From positions 2,232,001 to 2,296,000 of the forward strand of contig NZ_CP114205.1 in assembly GCF_027497495.1 (NCBI RefSeq): a stretch of 64,000 nt of DNA. Direction: 5' to 3'. The notes beneath the pieces are model-generated. The model was given only the letters and a program-made list of their open reading frames with translations. It was not told the DNA's origin and did not search any database. This document shows positions 11,598-22,246 of this stretch, one piece after another. Position 1 is the stretch's first letter, and every line of letters starts with the position of its first letter. This DNA comes from Streptomyces tubercidicus. Lineage in GTDB: Bacteria; Actinomycetota; Actinomycetes; Streptomycetales; Streptomycetaceae. The translations under genes were made by a program, and so were the position numbers.

Positions 11598-12842
11598 ATG
11601 GCGAAGGCTGAGCGCATCGATGCTGTAGTGGTCGGCGGCGGCATCGCCGGATCGGCCCTGGCGGCAGCGCTGGCGGGGGACGGATATGAGGTTCTGCTTC
11701 TTGAGCGCCAGACCGTCTACCGCGACAAGGTCCGCGGGGAGGTGGTCAATTGCTGGGGTGTGGTCGAACTGCGGCGGCTCGGTCTGGAGCAGGCCCTGCT
11801 GGACGCCGGCGGCACCTTCGTGAACCGCTTCGTCGGCTTCGACGAGACGATCGACCCGGAAACCGCCCAAGAGAATGCGCTGCACCTGGACGAGATGCTC
11901 CCGGAAATCCCGGGAGTTCTGGATGTGGGGCACCCGGAAGCCTGCGAAGCGCTGGCCACCGCCGCCGAGAACGCCGGCGCGACCGTCGTTCGCGGCGTAG
12001 GTGAAGTGAACGTGACCGGCGGGCCGAACCCGAGCGTCCGTTACGAACTCGACGACATGGAATACGAAGTCCCGTGCCGCATTGTTGTCGGCGCCGACGG
12101 CAGGATGTCGACCGTACGCCGCCAGCTGGACATCGCACTCGCTCAGACCTCGCCGAATTCATTGGGCGGCGGCATGCTTGTCGAAGACCTGCATGACTGG
12201 CCGGTCAATGTCACCTCTATCGGCACCGAAGGCGAGCTGCTCTACTTCGTTTTCCCGCGTGACGGCGCCCGGGCACGGCTCTATATTCTGCACGGCGTCG
12301 ATCAGAAGGGGCGCTTTTCCGGTCCCACCCGGCAGGCGGACTTCCTGAAGGCATTTCAGTTCCGATGCATACCCGGCAGTGAGATGTTTGCCTCGGCCAC
12401 GCCCTCCCAGTCCTGCGCGTTCTACCCGATGAACGACGCCTCGGCGGCCACCCCCATCGCCCCGGGCGCGGTGCTGGTCGGAGACGCCGCCGGGTGGAGC
12501 GACCCGGTCGTCGGGCAGGGGCTGTCCATTGCGCTGCGGGATGCCCGCTCGGTCCGGGAGGCGCTGCGGTCCCACAGCTCCTGGACGCCGGAGGCGTTCG
12601 AGGCGTACGCCGCGGAGCGCGCGGTACGCATGCGCCGCATCCGTATCTCCGGGTCGGTGCGCACCACGATGCAGATGACGTTCACCCCCGACGGCAGGGC
12701 CCGCCGCAAGGCCTACGCCAAGGCGATACAGGCCGATCCGATTCTGGCCGGCTCGCGGATGGCGACTTTCCAGGGACCGGACCAGGTCCCCGCCGAGTCC
12801 TTCGACCCGGGCGTCATCAAGCGCCTTTTCGCCCTCCAGTAG
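11598..12842 (+). CDS. FAD-dependent monooxygenase, PHBH-like
   Basis: 414-residue flavoprotein of the p-hydroxybenzoate hydroxylase/geranylgeranyl reductase fold. The N-terminal FAD motif is VVVGGGIAGSALAAAL (residues 10-25), RGE follows near residue 47, and the second FAD motif is GAVLVGDAAGWSDPVVGQG near residue 295. No membrane segments. It is the first gene of the operon, preceded by GGAGGAATCC ahead of ATG 11598. In this context it could oxidise the hydrazine intermediate or a late scaffold, but the substrate cannot be deduced. A saturase or dehydrogenase role is equally possible for this fold. Confidence 0.75.
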   Translation: MAKAERIDAVVVGGGIAGSALAAALAGDGYEVLLLERQTVYRDKVRGEVVNCWGVVELRRLGLEQALLDAGGTFVNRFVGFDETIDPETAQENALHLDEMLPEIPGVLDVGHPEACEALATAAENAGATVVRGVGEVNVTGGPNPSVRYELDDMEYEVPCRIVVGADGRMSTVRRQLDIALAQTSPNSLGGGMLVEDLHDWPVNVTSIGTEGELLYFVFPRDGARARLYILHGVDQKGRFSGPTRQADFLKAFQFRCIPGSEMFASATPSQSCAFYPMNDASAATPIAPGAVLVGDAAGWSDPVVGQGLSIALRDARSVREALRSHSSWTPEAFEAYAAERAVRMRRIRISGSVRTTMQMTFTPDGRARRKAYAKAIQADPILAGSRMATFQGPDQVPAESFDPGVIKRLFALQ

Positions 12843-12935: not shown

Positions 12936-13292
12936 ATGTACGTGAAAACCGCTGCGGACGACGAGCAGATCCGCAAGAACGGCTGCGACCTGCGTCAGCT
13001 GTACCCGTGGGAGAACGTCGTCGTACCGCCGTGGAACAGCACGCTGTGTTCCATCCGGCCGTCCGAGTCGAGCGCCCCGCACGGCCACGCCACGGACGAG
13101 ACGTTCATCTTCACCGGCGGAAAGGGGCATGTGCGGATCGGCGAGGAGGAGCGCGCGGTCATCCCCGGGGACGTCATCTACATCCCGCACGGGACCCATC
13201 ACATCGTCACCAACACCAGTGACTCCGACCCGCTGACGTTCGTCAGCATCTACTGGCTCCAGCCTTCGGAGCAGGGCGAGGAGCAGCGATGA
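12936..13292 (+). CDS. cupin, N-N bond-forming partner candidate
   Basis: 118-residue single-domain cupin. Metal-binding residues are visible in the two conserved boxes: HGHATDETF (His, His, Glu) near residues 49-57 and IPHGTHH near 85-91. Its stop overlaps the start of the MetRS-like gene (ATGA), so the two proteins are made together. In the hydrazine-forming enzymes of other actinomycetes (s56-p1, triacsin and related pathways) a cupin domain is fused to a MetRS-like domain and carries out the rearrangement that makes the N-N bond. Here the same order is kept but as two polypeptides. The family assignment is secure; the function is inferred from context. Confidence 0.8.
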   Translation: MYVKTAADDEQIRKNGCDLRQLYPWENVVVPPWNSTLCSIRPSESSAPHGHATDETFIFTGGKGHVRIGEEERAVIPGDVIYIPHGTHHIVTNTSDSDPLTFVSIYWLQPSEQGEEQR

Positions 13293-14963: not shown

Positions 14964-15332
14964 ATGCTCCGCACGTTCATGAACTCGAAGATCCACCGCG
15001 CCTCCATCACCGACTGCAACCTCAACTACGTCGGCTCGATCACCGTCTCCCCCGAGCTGCTGGAGGCCGCGGGGATCGGCGTCCACGAGCTGGTGCACGT
15101 GGTCAACGTCAACAACGGCGCGCGGTTCGAGACCTACACCATCCTGGGCGCCCCGCACGCCAACGAGGTGATCGTCAACGGTGCCGCCGCACGCCTGGTG
15201 GAGCCCAAAGACAAGGTCATCATCATCAGCTATGCGCAGCTGACGGAGACCGAGCTCGCCGAGCACAAGTCCCGCGTGGTCCACGTGGACGAAGAGAACC
15301 GGATCACCAGCACCGAGCTCCAGAGCCACTGA
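14964..15332 (+). CDS. panD: aspartate 1-decarboxylase proenzyme (PanD)
   Basis: 122-residue pyruvoyl enzyme making beta-alanine and CO2 from L-aspartate. The self-processing site is the canonical Gly24-Ser25 in NYVGSITV; Lys9 (NSKIHRA) and Tyr58 (FETYTILG) are present, so it should be active. ATG 14964 follows GAAGGAAG. PanD normally serves pantothenate synthesis with panC and panB, and neither is here. Its position inside the operon suggests that beta-alanine feeds the pathway, most simply as the second nitrogen donor for the N-N ligase. Confidence 0.93.
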   Translation: MLRTFMNSKIHRASITDCNLNYVGSITVSPELLEAAGIGVHELVHVVNVNNGARFETYTILGAPHANEVIVNGAAARLVEPKDKVIIISYAQLTETELAEHKSRVVHVDEENRITSTELQSH

Positions 15333-15400: not shown

Positions 15401-16735
15401 GTGACGAATCAACAGATTCATCCCGTACTCGGGGTGGGGTTCGGACCCGCGAACCTCTCCCTCGCGGTAACACTTGAAGAACTCGGCCATGGCGGCACCG
15501 CACACTTCATCGAGCGGGCCGACGGCTTCCAATGGCAGGAGCAGCAGCTGTTGCCCGGCGCGGACATCCAGAACAACCCGTTCCGCGACCTGGTGATGCA
15601 GCGTAATCAGTACAGCCGCTACACCTTCGTCAACTACCTTGCCGAGCAGGGTCAGTTGACCGACTACCTGCACCTGAACGCAAAGTTCCCGCTGCGGCGG
15701 GAGTACGCCGGTTACCTCGGCTGGGCGGCCGAAGCTTTCCGCGGCTCGGTGGACTACGGACAGTCCGCCACCGGGCTGTCCCTGATCACGGGGGATGACG
15801 GCGGCGAGCTGTTCGCGGTCCACACCGCGAGCGGCCGCCGCTACCTGGCAGAGACCGTCGTCATGGGCACCGGCCGCTCCCCGCGCATCCCCTACCCCTT
15901 CCAGGGCTTCCTGGGGCCGGACGTCTTCCACTCGACGCAGTATCTGTCCGCCATCGAGGGCCTGCGCGACCGGCGGATCAGGGTTGCCGTGGTGGGCGCC
16001 AGCCAGAGTTCCATCGAGATCATCCTCGATCTGCTGCGCCGCCCCAACGTCGAGCAGGTCACCTCCCTCCACCGCGGTATCGGATTCCGGCTCAAGGACA
16101 CCAGTCCCTACAGCCGGCAGGTGTTCCTCCCGCAATTCGTCGACTACTTCCACCCGTTGCCCAGCGAGACCAAGCAACGTATGCGGGAAGAACTCCGGTC
16201 GATCAACTACGCGGCATGCGACCAGGACGTCATCGACCAGCTCGTCACTGTGCAGCGCGAGTACGAGCTGGCCGGGTCCGACCGCCTGCGGATGGTGCCG
16301 TTCTCCGAGACGGCCGAGATCACCCGGGCGCCCGGCGGCGAGCACCGGCTGCGGGTACGCGATGTCAACCACGCCACGGAACAGACCCTCGACGCCGACG
16401 TGATCATTCTGGGCACGGGGTTCCGCGACTTCGGCACCGGGCCGAACGACGAGCCCTACCACCCCCTGCTGGAGGGCATCGCCCACCGGTTCCCCCTCGA
16501 CCGGGTCGGCGTTCCGGTCGTCGCACGGGACTACTCGATCGAGCTCACCGCCCAGGAGCACACGCCCACCCCGCGGCGGGTGTACCTCAACGGGCTGTGC
16601 GAGGCGAGTCACGGCATGGGAGACGCCGGAGCGCTGGCCATGCTCTCGGCCCGTTCCTCCGACATCGCCGAATCCCTGGTGGGCAAGGGCGAACGGACGG
16701 ACGAACGGCCCCTGGTCGCCGGGGCGCTGCGGTGA
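15401..16735 (+). CDS. lysine/ornithine N-hydroxylase (SidA/IucD family)
   Basis: 444-residue flavin N-monooxygenase that hydroxylates the side-chain amine of lysine or ornithine using NADPH and O2. Motifs: FAD site GVGFGPANLSLA (residues 11-22), QWQEQQLLPGADIQ substrate/FAD loop, NADPH site VVGASQSSIEIILDLL near 195-210, and ILGTGFRDF near 340. Full length for the family. The GTG start at 15401 is chosen because translation from it gives the family N-terminus; an ATG seven bases upstream is out of frame. With the cupin/MetRS pair it would supply N6-hydroxylysine. No siderophore synthetase gene is nearby. Confidence 0.9.
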   Translation: MTNQQIHPVLGVGFGPANLSLAVTLEELGHGGTAHFIERADGFQWQEQQLLPGADIQNNPFRDLVMQRNQYSRYTFVNYLAEQGQLTDYLHLNAKFPLRREYAGYLGWAAEAFRGSVDYGQSATGLSLITGDDGGELFAVHTASGRRYLAETVVMGTGRSPRIPYPFQGFLGPDVFHSTQYLSAIEGLRDRRIRVAVVGASQSSIEIILDLLRRPNVEQVTSLHRGIGFRLKDTSPYSRQVFLPQFVDYFHPLPSETKQRMREELRSINYAACDQDVIDQLVTVQREYELAGSDRLRMVPFSETAEITRAPGGEHRLRVRDVNHATEQTLDADVIILGTGFRDFGTGPNDEPYHPLLEGIAHRFPLDRVGVPVVARDYSIELTAQEHTPTPRRVYLNGLCEASHGMGDAGALAMLSARSSDIAESLVGKGERTDERPLVAGALR

Positions 16736-17814
16736 CGCAGTCCGTCGCCCGCGCGGATGTCGCCGTCGTCGGCGGCGGCATCATCGGCCTGGCCACTGCC
16801 GAACGGCTCACCGCGCAGCGACTGTCGGTGGTCCTGGTGGACGACTCGGGCATCGCCGGAGGAGCCACCGGGTCCTCCGGCGGGCTCATCCGCGCCTTCG
16901 ACCCCGACCAGGACCACGCGTCCTGGGCGGCACAGGGCCTGGAGCTCTACCTCCGGCGTGGCTGGCGGGGCACCTGGCCGCAGGTGCACGAGCACGGCAG
17001 CCTGACCCTCCTGCGCACCGCGGACCTGACCCGGCGCAGCGCGCAGACCAGCGCGCTGCGCGCGGCCGGCCATGACCTCGCGCTGCTGTCCGCGGACGAA
17101 ATACGCACCCGCTTTCCCGGGCTCGACGTACCCGACGACCTGGCGGGGGTGTACGAACCACGGGGCGGCTGGGTCCCGGCCCGGCAAGTGGCCCATGCGC
17201 TGCTGTGCGACGCGGGCCCCGGCCTGCGGGTACTGCGTGCACGGGCCACCGCCGTACGCACCGCCGACTCCCGCGTGACCGGCCTGGCCACCGATGCCGG
17301 CTCCGTACAGGCCCGCGCCGTCCTGCTCGCCGCCGGCGCCGGCAGCAGCCCGCTGGCCGCCTCTGTAGGAGTGCCCCTGCCCCTGCGCACCCGGTCGGTG
17401 GCCTATGGCCTCTTCGACCCGGGCATCAGCGCACCGAACGCCGCACTGCCGACCATCGTCGACGTCACCACCGGGGCGTGGGTGCGCAGATGGGATACGC
17501 ACCCGACGCTGCTCGCCGGTGTGCGCTCCAGTGCCACCGACGTACCGGAGACCGTGCGCACGGGCATCTCGGCGCCGGAGGAAGAGCGTATCCGCGGGGT
17601 CCTGCGCCGGCGTCTCCCGTGCCTGGCAGACGCCCCCGCGGTGGGCGGACGCACCGCCTACGACGCGCAGGCCCTTGCCGGAGGCGGCGCGGTCACCGCC
17701 TGGCCCGAACCGCGCGGTCTGGTCACCGCCACCGGCTGGAACGGCGGCGGGTTCAAGCTCGCCCCCGCCGTCGGCGCCCACACGGCCGCCCGGCTCCAAG
17801 AGGTGCTGACATGA
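16732..17814 (+). CDS. DAO-type FAD oxidase, hydrazino-acid release candidate
   Basis: 360-residue FAD-dependent oxidoreductase of the D-amino-acid oxidase/glycine oxidase family. Dinucleotide motif VAVVGGGIIGLATAERL (residues 10-26), then GGATGSSGGLIR; the C-terminal FAD loop is TATGWNGGGFKLAPAVG. GTG 16732 overlaps the stop of the N-hydroxylase gene (GTGA). In the s56-p1 pathway an FAD oxidase of this type cleaves the N-N-linked lysine adduct and frees the hydrazino acid. The same order of genes here supports that role by analogy only. Confidence 0.83.
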   Translation: MTQSVARADVAVVGGGIIGLATAERLTAQRLSVVLVDDSGIAGGATGSSGGLIRAFDPDQDHASWAAQGLELYLRRGWRGTWPQVHEHGSLTLLRTADLTRRSAQTSALRAAGHDLALLSADEIRTRFPGLDVPDDLAGVYEPRGGWVPARQVAHALLCDAGPGLRVLRARATAVRTADSRVTGLATDAGSVQARAVLLAAGAGSSPLAASVGVPLPLRTRSVAYGLFDPGISAPNAALPTIVDVTTGAWVRRWDTHPTLLAGVRSSATDVPETVRTGISAPEEERIRGVLRRRLPCLADAPAVGGRTAYDAQALAGGGAVTAWPEPRGLVTATGWNGGGFKLAPAVGAHTAARLQEVLT

Positions 17815-19155: not shown

Positions 19156-19977
19156 ATGACCGCGCCACACCCCACCGCCGCAGTCCTGCCCGACCGGTGG
19201 TTCCGCACCCGTCCCGACTCGTCCGTGCACGACCGGCCCCGGCTGCTCGCCCGGTCCTTGATCGACGCGGCCGATCTGGACGATCGCATCGCCTTCTACG
19301 AGCGGCTGCTCGCCGTACCCGCCGATCTCCGTATGCCCATCCCCGACTTCGGCGGCCTGGAGCTGGCCGCCGTCGGAAACCTGCTGCTGATCGCCAGCGT
19401 CCGTCCGTTCACCCCGATCCAGCGGCGGACCGCTTACTCCCTCATCGTGCCGTCACTGACCGCACAGCTGGAGACCGTGCGCGCCGCAGGGGGCACCGTC
19501 CTCGAACCGCCCGAGGACATCCTGCCCGGCGCCCGGGCGCGCGTGCGCTACCCCGACGACGCCGTGGCGGAGCTGGTAGAACACCGCCCGCAGCCCGGCG
19601 AGACGCCCGCACCGTCGCGCACCGCGCCGCCCGACGGCGGCTCGCGGCCCGCACCGCGGCTTCTGGTGCGGCGTCAAGTGCCCCGGGCCGACTTCCACGA
19701 CGCCGTCGCCCTCTACGAGAAGGTCCTGGAGACCTCCGCCCGGCCCCACGCCGGCCCGAGCGGCCATGACCTGGACGTCGCGGTCATCGGGAACCTGCTC
19801 CTCGTCGGCAAGGACGCCCGCGACCCGGCTGCCGACGCGGCCACCGCCATCGCGCTGCCGGCCCCCCACCCGCGGCAGCTCGTGGAGGCGTCCGCGCCCA
19901 CCGGCTCAAGGGCCCTCATACCGCTGCCCGACGGGGGCCTGGCGGAGGTGTGGGACAGCACGGCCCTGGGTCTCTGA
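19156..19977 (+). CDS. tandem VOC (glyoxalase/bleomycin-resistance fold) protein
   Basis: 273-residue protein with two half-repeats of the VOC fold. The first spans about residues 28-145 ([19 protein letters not shown], then VGNLLLIA); the second about 165-270 ([16 protein letters not shown], then IGNLLLVG). The repeated xGNLLLxx strand shows internal duplication. Strong GAGGAG precedes ATG 19156. VOC proteins are metal-dependent lyases, isomerases and dioxygenases or drug-binding resistance proteins. As the last gene of the operon it could be either a tailoring enzyme or self-protection; the sequence does not decide. Confidence 0.75.
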
Positions 19978-19978
19978 C

Positions 19979-20206
19979 GGCGACCGGTTCACGTCCGAGA
20001 CGGCATCATTCGGCAACGACCTGTCGACGCTGCCCAACTTCCCCGCCGAGATCCGGGCCCCCGCCGGGACCCTGCCGGGTGACGCACCGAATGTGCTGCT
20101 GGGCGCGGCCCGTATCGCACTGACCTACCGCACCCCCGTCTTCCTGCTCTCCGACGGCTATCTGGCCAACGGCTCGGAGCCGTGGCGGATCCCCGACGTC
20201 GAGGAA
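19979..20206 (+). pseudogene. decayed fragment of 2-oxoglutarate:ferredoxin oxidoreductase alpha subunit
   Basis: Immediately after the VOC stop, one open frame contains three joined pieces of the alpha subunit (KorA type): [20 protein letters not shown] with [12 protein letters not shown] (19979-20080), DAPNVLL (20081-20101), and [20 protein letters not shown] with [10 protein letters not shown] (20102-20206). In the intact protein the first two lie near the N-terminus and the third several hundred residues later, so two internal deletions have removed most of the gene. There is no start codon of its own. Homology is clear from memory of the family; it is certainly not functional. Confidence 0.8.
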
Positions 20207-20290
20207 CGGCCCGATCGTGCTGGCCGGCAACGACACCTGGACGGTCGTCGGCTGACCGAACGGATTCGCCCGTTCCGCGGGTGCCTCCGG

Positions 20291-21232: not shown

Positions 21233-22246
21233 ATGGGGAATACCGTAGCTTTAGCACTCGCCGAGCATGTGTCACTCATCGAATTAGCGGCTCCGTGTGA
21301 GATTTTTGGTGTCGACAGATCTCCACTCACGAATTCTTGGTATGACTTCATCATCTGTGGTTCCGAAAATGCAAGAGTCGGCGGGTGGTTCCGGCCGGAC
21401 GGTTATCGGAGCCTGGATGAATTGGTGACGGCCCACACCGTTATCGTCCCGGGTTCACCCAATACCCCCGGGAAACAGCCCGCCGACCTGGTCGAAGCGG
21501 TACGCGCAGCACACGACGCCGGCGCCCGGATCGTCTCCGTCTGCGCCGGGGCGTTCGTACTGGCCGCCGCCGGGCTTCTGGATGGCCGGCGCGCCACCAC
21601 TCATTGGCTCTATGCCGACCTGCTGGCCGCGCGATACCCGCACGTCAACGTGGACCCGGACGTGCTTTACGTCGATGACGGCGACATTCTCACTTCTGCC
21701 GGGAAACTGGCGGGTATCGATATGTGTCTCCACTTGGTCCGACTCGACTACGGCGCAGCGGTCGCCAATGATTTGGCGCGACGACTCATCATGCCGCCGC
21801 TCCGCGACGGCGATCAGGCTCAATTCATCACCCCCCTTGCTACGCAAGGGATAGATCACGCCCTGGCGGAACTGCTGCCTTGGGTGAAAGCGCACCTGGA
21901 CGAGCCGCTGACCGTGGTTGATTTGGCGCGGCGGGTCAATATGAGTACGCGCACCCTCAGCCGGCACTTCAATGCGGTTACCGGGAAAACGCCGCTGCAG
22001 TGGTTGCTCACGCAGCGGATTCAGCAAGCACACGAGCTCCTTGAGACCTCCACCTACAGCATCGAGCAGATCGCTGCGCAGACGGGAATGGGAACGGCGG
22101 CCACGCTGCGCCGCCATTTCAGCCGGGCGGTGGGGATGCCGCCGGACGCCTACCGGCGCGCCTTCCGGGCCGGGCAGGTTCCGGTGAAGTTCAGGCCGGT
22201 GGCACAGCAGGAGAGCCGCGGGGAAGCCTTGCCGCAAGCGTCCTGA
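21233..22246 (+). CDS. GlxA/AraC-family transcriptional regulator with two TTA codons
   Basis: 337-residue regulator with an N-terminal DJ-1/PfpI-like domain (nucleophile-elbow motif VSVCAGAFVLAAAG near residue 100) and a C-terminal AraC double helix-turn-helix (LTVVDLARRVNMSTRTLSRH and IEQIAAQTGMGTAATLRRHF). This is the architecture of AdpA. Codons 7 (21251-21253) and 18 (21284-21286) are TTA, the rare leucine codon read by the bldA tRNA, so translation should be delayed until development. Downstream of the N-N operon, it is a plausible pathway activator. Confidence 0.88.
   Translation: MGNTVALALAEHVSLIELAAPCEIFGVDRSPLTNSWYDFIICGSENARVGGWFRPDGYRSLDELVTAHTVIVPGSPNTPGKQPADLVEAVRAAHDAGARIVSVCAGAFVLAAAGLLDGRRATTHWLYADLLAARYPHVNVDPDVLYVDDGDILTSAGKLAGIDMCLHLVRLDYGAAVANDLARRLIMPPLRDGDQAQFITPLATQGIDHALAELLPWVKAHLDEPLTVVDLARRVNMSTRTLSRHFNAVTGKTPLQWLLTQRIQQAHELLETSTYSIEQIAAQTGMGTAATLRRHFSRAVGMPPDAYRRAFRAGQVPVKFRPVAQQESRGEALPQAS

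What the first reader, a model, noticed from the sequence alone, without database searches (positions are those of the whole stretch)
14964..15332. PanD inside the operon points to beta-alanine as the second amino acid
Hydrazine synthetases with known substrates use amino acids such as glycine or glutamate. A complete aspartate decarboxylase between the MetRS-like and N-hydroxylase genes, with no panB or panC, suggests a dedicated beta-alanine supply. Joining it to N6-hydroxylysine and oxidative release would give 3-hydrazinopropionate, which could close to a pyrazolidinone or pyrazole ring.
Basis: inference. Interest (0 to 1): 0.78.

Follow-up and report, generated by a model that had tools for sequence, protein, structure and literature searches.

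The report
Beta-alanine-making gene inside hydrazine cluster
A Streptomyces gene cluster that builds nitrogen-nitrogen bonds carries its own beta-alanine-making enzyme, kept in all 19 related clusters examined, so beta-alanine, not yet reported as a building block for these enzymes in the papers I could search, is probably one half of the molecule it makes.

Summary
A complete aspartate 1-decarboxylase (PanD; TIGR00223 above cut-off, catalytic residues intact) lies between a MetRS-like gene and an N-hydroxylase gene of a split cupin/MetRS hydrazine synthetase operon, with no panB or panC there. All 18 other clusters of this type carry the same PanD clade (one gain on the tree; 0 of 68 other hydrazine-synthetase rows have it), and every one of those 18 genomes has a further panD. 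Three close relatives of the window strain have no panD at all. The window genome also has panB, panC and pyrimidine-degradation genes that could make beta-alanine. PanD is therefore a dedicated pathway gene. Beta-alanine is most likely a partner in the N-N bond, giving a 2-carboxyethylhydrazine unit. Which side it takes is open. The assumed partner N6-hydroxylysine is doubtful: the N-hydroxylase has Arg239 where Lys/Orn hydroxylases have a substrate-binding Asn, and some of its nearest relatives sit beside diaminobutyrate-making EctB genes. The pyrazolidinone or pyrazole product was not tested. Verdict: partly supported; new variant of a known kind.

The parts
14964..15332 (+). PanD, pyruvoyl-type aspartate 1-decarboxylase, the gene in question; presumed beta-alanine supply
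   Evidence: TIGR00223 equivalog, Gly24-Ser25 cleavage site, catalytic residues intact; clade separate from other Streptomyces PanDs at 100/100
11598..12842 (+). FAD-dependent oxidoreductase (PF01494, geranylgeranyl-reductase/hydroxylase type); tailoring step unknown
   Evidence: conserved in 15 of 16 named loci
12936..13292 (+). stand-alone zinc cupin of the hydrazine synthetase; His49, His51, Glu55, His89 match the PyrN metal/catalytic pattern by position
   Evidence: pattern from PMC8664883
13289..14884 (+). MetRS-like amino-acid-activating subunit of the hydrazine synthetase; start overlaps the cupin stop by 4 nt
   Evidence: AlphaFold model pLDDT 90, nearest solved structure PyrN C-terminal domain 9l8v, TM 0.81-0.83
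15401..16735 (+). flavin N-hydroxylating monooxygenase (Lys/Orn family) with non-canonical Arg239 in the substrate site
16732..17814 (+). DAO-family FAD oxidoreductase, candidate for oxidative cleavage of the hydrazine conjugate (Spb39/Tri27/Apy10-like role inferred)
   Evidence: role by analogy with PMC11705231
17811..19142 (+). stand-alone acyltransferase of the condensation-domain/WS-DGAT fold with an HxxxDG motif (HFRCDG)
   Evidence: no Pfam hit; AlphaFold model and Foldseek, E 5.9e-16
19156..19977 (+). VOC/glyoxalase-like protein, end of the conserved 8-gene core
21233..22246 (+). AraC/DJ-1 type regulator; near the core in 4 other loci

Best explanation
The operon encodes a split cupin/MetRS-type hydrazine synthetase pathway with its own aspartate decarboxylase. 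PanD turns L-aspartate into beta-alanine inside the pathway, and beta-alanine becomes one of the two amine partners joined by the N-N bond. That gives an intermediate bearing an NH-NH-CH2CH2-COOH unit, which the DAO-family enzyme probably cleaves and the condensation-type acyltransferase and FAD enzyme then modify. Shown here: presence, integrity, exclusive one-origin association and retention of PanD, and the identity of the hydrazine synthetase module by sequence and fold. Inferred: that beta-alanine enters the N-N bond rather than another part of the product. Which side it takes (adenylated by the MetRS-like protein or hydroxylated by the NMO) is unresolved; the two versions are listed as rivals and together make up this one.
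For: PanD is present in 16/16 named close loci and 0/64 distant ones, always between MetRS-like and NMO. On the MetRS-like tree the label needs one change, 17 against 68 rows, support 100/100. Cluster PanDs are one clade, 73-83% identical to the window copy, while other Streptomyces PanDs are 47-58% identical to it. Every one of 18 other cluster-bearing genomes has a further panD, so the cluster copy is not there for CoA. PanD, MetRS-like and NMO evolve under similar constraint (pN/pS 0.28-0.48). The PanD-clade MetRS-like proteins share a nearly invariant pocket signature unlike all other clades examined, and the NMOs share their own, Arg239, which fits a changed pair of substrates. No other amino-acid-activating enzyme lies in the 8-gene core. 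Precedent for a substrate-supply gene beside such a synthetase: ectB next to three related loci.
Against: No product, assay or ligand-bound model. All amino acids listed for the adenylated side in this enzyme family are alpha-amino acids (Gly, Ala, Ser, Glu, Tyr; PMC11705231). The MetRS-like protein keeps the Asp (D56) that anchors the amine in MetRS and is shared by most relatives. PanD has a single origin, so its association is one evolutionary event, however well retained. Beta-alanine could be used in another step, such as acyl transfer.
Confidence: 0.6

Rival explanations
1. Sub-version A: the MetRS-like protein adenylates beta-alanine, which is joined to N6-hydroxylysine; DAO-type cleavage of the lysine C-N bond frees 3-hydrazinopropionate.
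For: Known pathways in this family (Spb40, Tri28, PyrN) use N6-hydroxylysine, and Spb39-type cleavage releases the hydrazine of the adenylated amino acid (PMC11705231). The MetRS-like pocket of the PanD clade is distinct and nearly invariant. Among solved structures the NMO is nearest to a protein named lysine 6-monooxygenase (5cqf).
Against: The NMO has Arg239 in place of the substrate-binding Asn of canonical Lys/Orn hydroxylases (Asn293 role in PMC7347517). Several of the nearest NMOs sit beside EctB. No beta-amino acid is listed as an adenylated partner.
Confidence: 0.29
2. Sub-version B: the NMO hydroxylates the amine of beta-alanine (in place of diaminobutyrate in its relatives), and the MetRS-like protein supplies an ordinary alpha-amino acid that is later oxidised off, as Apy10 removes alanine as pyruvate. 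The freed unit is again 3-hydrazinopropionate.
For: panD precedes the NMO gene directly. Related clusters carry ectB, which makes the NMO's probable substrate diaminobutyrate. Arg239 replaces Asn/Asp/Glu at a substrate-contact position, which could hold the carboxylate of a short substrate lacking an alpha-amino group. Precedent for N4-hydroxy-diaminobutyrate plus alanine and Apy10 cleavage (PMC11705231).
Against: No N-hydroxylation of beta-alanine by this NMO family is known to me. The Arg239 role is read from an alignment only.
Confidence: 0.31
3. PanD supplies beta-alanine as a building block for another bond, for example an amide or ester made by the condensation-type acyltransferase.
For: The core holds a stand-alone acyltransferase of the condensation fold with an HxxxDG motif that could join beta-alanine to another unit.
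Against: No carrier protein, adenylation domain or CoA ligase that would activate beta-alanine is in the conserved core. PanD sits inside the N-N-forming gene block, not beside the acyltransferase.
Confidence: 0.2
4. PanD is a self-resistance copy: the hydrazine product attacks the pyruvoyl group of ordinary PanD, and the cluster copy tolerates it.
For: A divergent second copy of a housekeeping enzyme inside a gene cluster is a known resistance pattern (general knowledge). The window strain has only this copy.
Against: No substitution in known catalytic residues. Position in the middle of the biosynthetic block in every cluster. It would not by itself explain the changed MetRS-like and NMO signatures.
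Confidence: 0.1
5. Ordinary pantothenate supply: PanD simply serves CoA synthesis and happens to lie here.
For: It is the genome's only panD, with panB and panC present elsewhere, so it may also feed CoA in this strain.
Against: All 18 other cluster-bearing genomes have another panD. 12 of 150 Streptomyces and 3 of 10 close relatives have none. The window genome has a dihydropyrimidinase and a beta-ureidopropionase-like gene in one region.
Confidence: 0.05

Closest known systems
PyrN / RHS1 hydrazine synthetases (pyrazomycin; Rhodococcus jostii)
   Same: MetRS-like plus zinc cupin, here as two stand-alone proteins as in RHS1; model matches the PyrN C-terminal domain 9l8v at TM 0.81-0.83
   Different: 23% identity to PyrN (glutamate) in the structural alignment, and a panD in the operon
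Spb38/39/40 (s56-p1) and Tri26/27/28 (triacsin) pathways
   Same: NMO, hydrazine synthetase and DAO-family oxidoreductase set
   Different: Those use lysine and glycine, and no dedicated amino acid supply gene is mentioned in the descriptions read; here the NMO signature differs and PanD, an acyltransferase and another FAD enzyme are added
Apy9/10/11 (actinopyridazinone)
   Same: A pathway where the hydroxylated amine (diaminobutyrate) is not lysine and the other amino acid is oxidised off
Afn8/9/18 (albofungin)
   Same: Stand-alone MetRS-like and cupin proteins with an N6-lysine hydroxylase
   Different: Proposed to give free hydrazine; no PanD mentioned in the review read
PanD (E. coli, M. 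tuberculosis 2c45)
   Same: Full-length homologue with all catalytic residues
   Different: Separate clade, with no panB or panC beside it; embedded in a hydrazine operon

Membership tests
cupin/MetRS-like hydrazine synthetase | MetRS-like protein with ATP-binding HIGH- and KMSKS-type motifs | tested here: met
   HLGH 24-27 and KFSTSK 331-336; H24, G26, H27 and K331-S335 invariant in 22 sequences
cupin/MetRS-like hydrazine synthetase | fold of a proven member | tested here: met
   AlphaFold model pLDDT 90.4; best PDB match PyrN C-terminal domain with Glu-sulfamoyl-adenosine, TM 0.81-0.83
cupin/MetRS-like hydrazine synthetase | zinc cupin with His-x-His-x3-Glu and distal His | tested here: met
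   His49, His51, Glu55, His89 by sequence position against the PyrN pattern; metal binding itself not tested
cupin/MetRS-like hydrazine synthetase | adjacent N-hydroxylating monooxygenase | tested here: met
   PF13434, E 3.2e-77
cupin/MetRS-like hydrazine synthetase | N-N bond formation from an amino acid and an N-hydroxyamine | not testable with these tools
   needs enzyme assay
aspartate 1-decarboxylase (PanD) | TIGR00223 equivalog score, Gly24-Ser25 self-cleavage site, Lys9/Arg54/Tyr58 | tested here: met
   132.6 bits against 106; residues invariant in the aligned cluster copies
aspartate 1-decarboxylase (PanD) | decarboxylation of L-aspartate | not testable with these tools
   needs enzyme assay
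lysine N6- / ornithine N5-hydroxylase | family membership (PF13434) | tested here: met
lysine N6- / ornithine N5-hydroxylase | substrate-binding Asn (SidA Asn293 equivalent) | tested here: not met
   Arg239 in the window and all PanD-type clusters; Asn in the other groups, Asp/Glu in the nearest relatives
pantothenate operon | panB and/or panC beside panD | tested here: not met
   panB and panC lie at distant positions in the genome

The most novel reading that the evidence does not exclude
A coherent family of actinobacterial clusters makes 3-hydrazinopropionate, an N-amino-beta-alanine, or compounds built on it, through a hydrazine synthetase module that uses a beta-amino acid: either the first N-hydroxylation of beta-alanine by this NMO family, or the first beta-amino acid adenylated by a MetRS-like hydrazine synthetase.
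Probability: 0.5. Interest if true: 0.78.

Novelty: new variant of a known kind. Interest (0 to 1): 0.62.

Why it matters
The substrates reported for hydrazine synthetases in the review read are alpha-amino acids on the adenylated side, with some diamines on the hydroxylated side (PMC11705231). A beta-alanine version would extend this N-N-forming chemistry to beta-amino acids and point to 3-hydrazinopropionate, a compound I recall as a strong synthetic GABA-transaminase inhibitor (own knowledge, not checked). The cluster family is sharply defined, occurs in culturable strains such as S. griseofuscus DSM 40191 and Kitasatospora griseola, and can be tested with a simple panD deletion and beta-alanine feeding. 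The co-localised supply genes (panD here, ectB in relatives) also give a genomic handle for predicting hydrazine synthetase substrates.

Tried and rejected
Reading substrate from the MetRS-like pocket: the signature is distinct but could not be translated into beta-alanine, because the eight-residue code (Matsuda et al. 2024) was not found in the open library and model coordinates are not exposed. Literature searches for beta-alanine or 3-hydrazinopropionic acid with hydrazine synthetases found nothing; the library holds open papers only, so absence is weak. Pfam, NCBIfam and PDB sequence searches for the acyltransferase found nothing; only the fold search identified it. Considered and rejected: PanD as an ordinary pantothenate gene; PanD as a decayed or chance ORF (ruled out by conservation). 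The kor remnant downstream was not taken as part of the pathway.

Full report
Observation. The ORF at 14964-15332 (+) is a complete PanD of 122 residues. It matches PF02261 at E 6.9e-46 and the NCBIfam equivalog TIGR00223 above its cut-off. The Gly-Ser cleavage site and the active-site residues known from E. coli PanD (own knowledge) are present and invariant in the aligned cluster copies. It lies between a MetRS-like gene and an N-hydroxylating monooxygenase gene (NMO), in an operon whose cupin and MetRS-like genes overlap by 4 nt. panB and panC are elsewhere on the chromosome.

The hydrazine synthetase is real by sequence and fold. The MetRS-like protein keeps the HIGH- and KMSKS-type motifs and its model (pLDDT 90) is closest to the PyrN C-terminal domain solved with glutamyl-sulfamoyl-adenosine, TM 0.81-0.83. 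The stand-alone cupin keeps the His/His/Glu/His pattern shown to matter in PyrN (PMC8664883). Stand-alone pairs of this kind are known, as in Rhodococcus jostii RHS1 (PMC8664883) and albofungin Afn8/Afn9 (PMC11705231).

The panD question. I tested whether it should count. A scan of bacterial and archaeal genome contigs with a profile of the MetRS-like protein gave 80 named loci. All 16 with 66-75% identity carry PanD between MetRS-like and NMO, in a syntenic core FAD enzyme, cupin, MetRS-like, PanD, NMO, DAO, acyltransferase, VOC (the FAD enzyme was not found in one of them, L077). None of the other 64 loci carries PanD. Two further genomes (G051, G269) have PanD in the same slot, giving 19 clusters with the window. 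On a tree of 85 MetRS-like proteins the PanD label needs one change, 17 rows against 68, with full support. The cluster PanDs form their own clade apart from 34 other Streptomyces PanDs.

All 16 named genomes have two to five panD genes, and the other two have a second one as well. Elsewhere, then, the cluster copy is additional to the ordinary gene. In the window strain's own group panD is patchy: of the ten genomes closest by panC DNA, three have none, and the single panD of the closest one, G064, lies in a stretch that finds no match at the corresponding place in the window genome. Of 150 Streptomyces genomes, 12 have none. The window genome also holds a dihydropyrimidinase above its family cut-off and, about 3 kb away, a protein like beta-ureidopropionase and N-carbamoylputrescine amidase, which could give beta-alanine from pyrimidines (inference). 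So the only-panD finding shows that the strain may also use this PanD for CoA, not that PanD is a housekeeping gene.

The cluster looks like an insertion. In G064 the DNA on the left of the window's operon (add gene), the 4HBT gene and the MFS/LysR genes lie next to one another without the operon.

Where does beta-alanine go? The 8-gene core has one amino-acid-activating enzyme, the MetRS-like protein, and one amine-hydroxylating enzyme, the NMO; it has no NRPS, ATP-grasp or CoA ligase. The acyltransferase, without a Pfam family, has the condensation/WS-DGAT fold and an HxxxDG motif. Entry of beta-alanine into the N-N bond is therefore the simplest reading, but it is inference. Two versions exist. 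In B the NMO hydroxylates it. Evidence bearing on this: the PanD-clade MetRS-like proteins have a shared, distinct signature at positions corresponding to the methionine pocket of E. coli MetRS (S15, P16, T18, D56, W257, I260, Y261, H264, N290, N294; correspondence set by hand from motif alignment), and the NMOs have Arg239 at the position of SidA Asn293 (also placed by motif), a residue whose loss weakens ornithine binding (PMC7347517). Among the nearest MetRS-like and NMO relatives, those in Agrobacterium vitis, Puniceibacterium and Paraburkholderia lie beside ectB genes, which make diaminobutyrate. In the actinopyridazinone pathway diaminobutyrate is the hydroxylated partner and alanine is oxidised off (PMC11705231). 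By that analogy PanD could feed the NMO rather than the MetRS-like protein. I cannot separate A from B. Both lead to the same unit, NH-NH-CH2CH2-COOH, and both would be new as far as I could search. Against both stands that the adenylated partners listed so far are alpha-amino acids, and that no hydroxylated partner listed is beta-alanine.

What is not supported is the assumption of N6-hydroxylysine as partner, and what is untested is the ring closure to a pyrazolidinone or pyrazole.

Verdict. A dedicated PanD in a coherent family of 19 hydrazine clusters: a new variant of a known kind, with a clear prediction that a panD deletion and beta-alanine feeding can test.

Noticed in passing
window 19979-20215: Two short fragments of a 2-oxoacid:ferredoxin oxidoreductase alpha subunit (KorA) follow the core. 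In related loci (L069, L074, L076; partly L071, L079) intact korA and korB follow the VOC gene, with ferredoxin and serA where the locus is long enough. The fragments are 95-96% identical in DNA to a distant place in G064 (C1:4032361-4033559). Either a shared insertion site or extra cluster genes lost here.
   Followed up: partly
L089:12907-14205, L094:12696-14153, L107:14226-15548: EctB diaminobutyrate transaminase genes directly beside hydrazine synthetase/NMO genes in Agrobacterium vitis, Puniceibacterium sediminis and Paraburkholderia: probable DABA-using hydrazine clusters.
   Followed up: partly
L065:2942-5478 and matching places in many other named loci: Upstream of many sister clusters lie an AfsA-like butyrolactone synthase, a TetR-type regulator and an SDR gene, suggesting control by a gamma-butyrolactone signal; none was found by these probes near the window's operon.
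   Followed up: no
L163:3443-9496 (G064:C1): The only panD of the closest relative G064 lies near what looks like an AMP-ligase gene, with an SDR and a dioxygenase-like gene next to it (by eye): possibly another natural-product cluster with its own PanD.
   Followed up: no
L117, L118, L082, L097: Several hydrazine synthetase loci of other actinobacteria have DAO-family genes 8-9 kb downstream and other pocket signatures; their products were not looked into.
   Followed up: no
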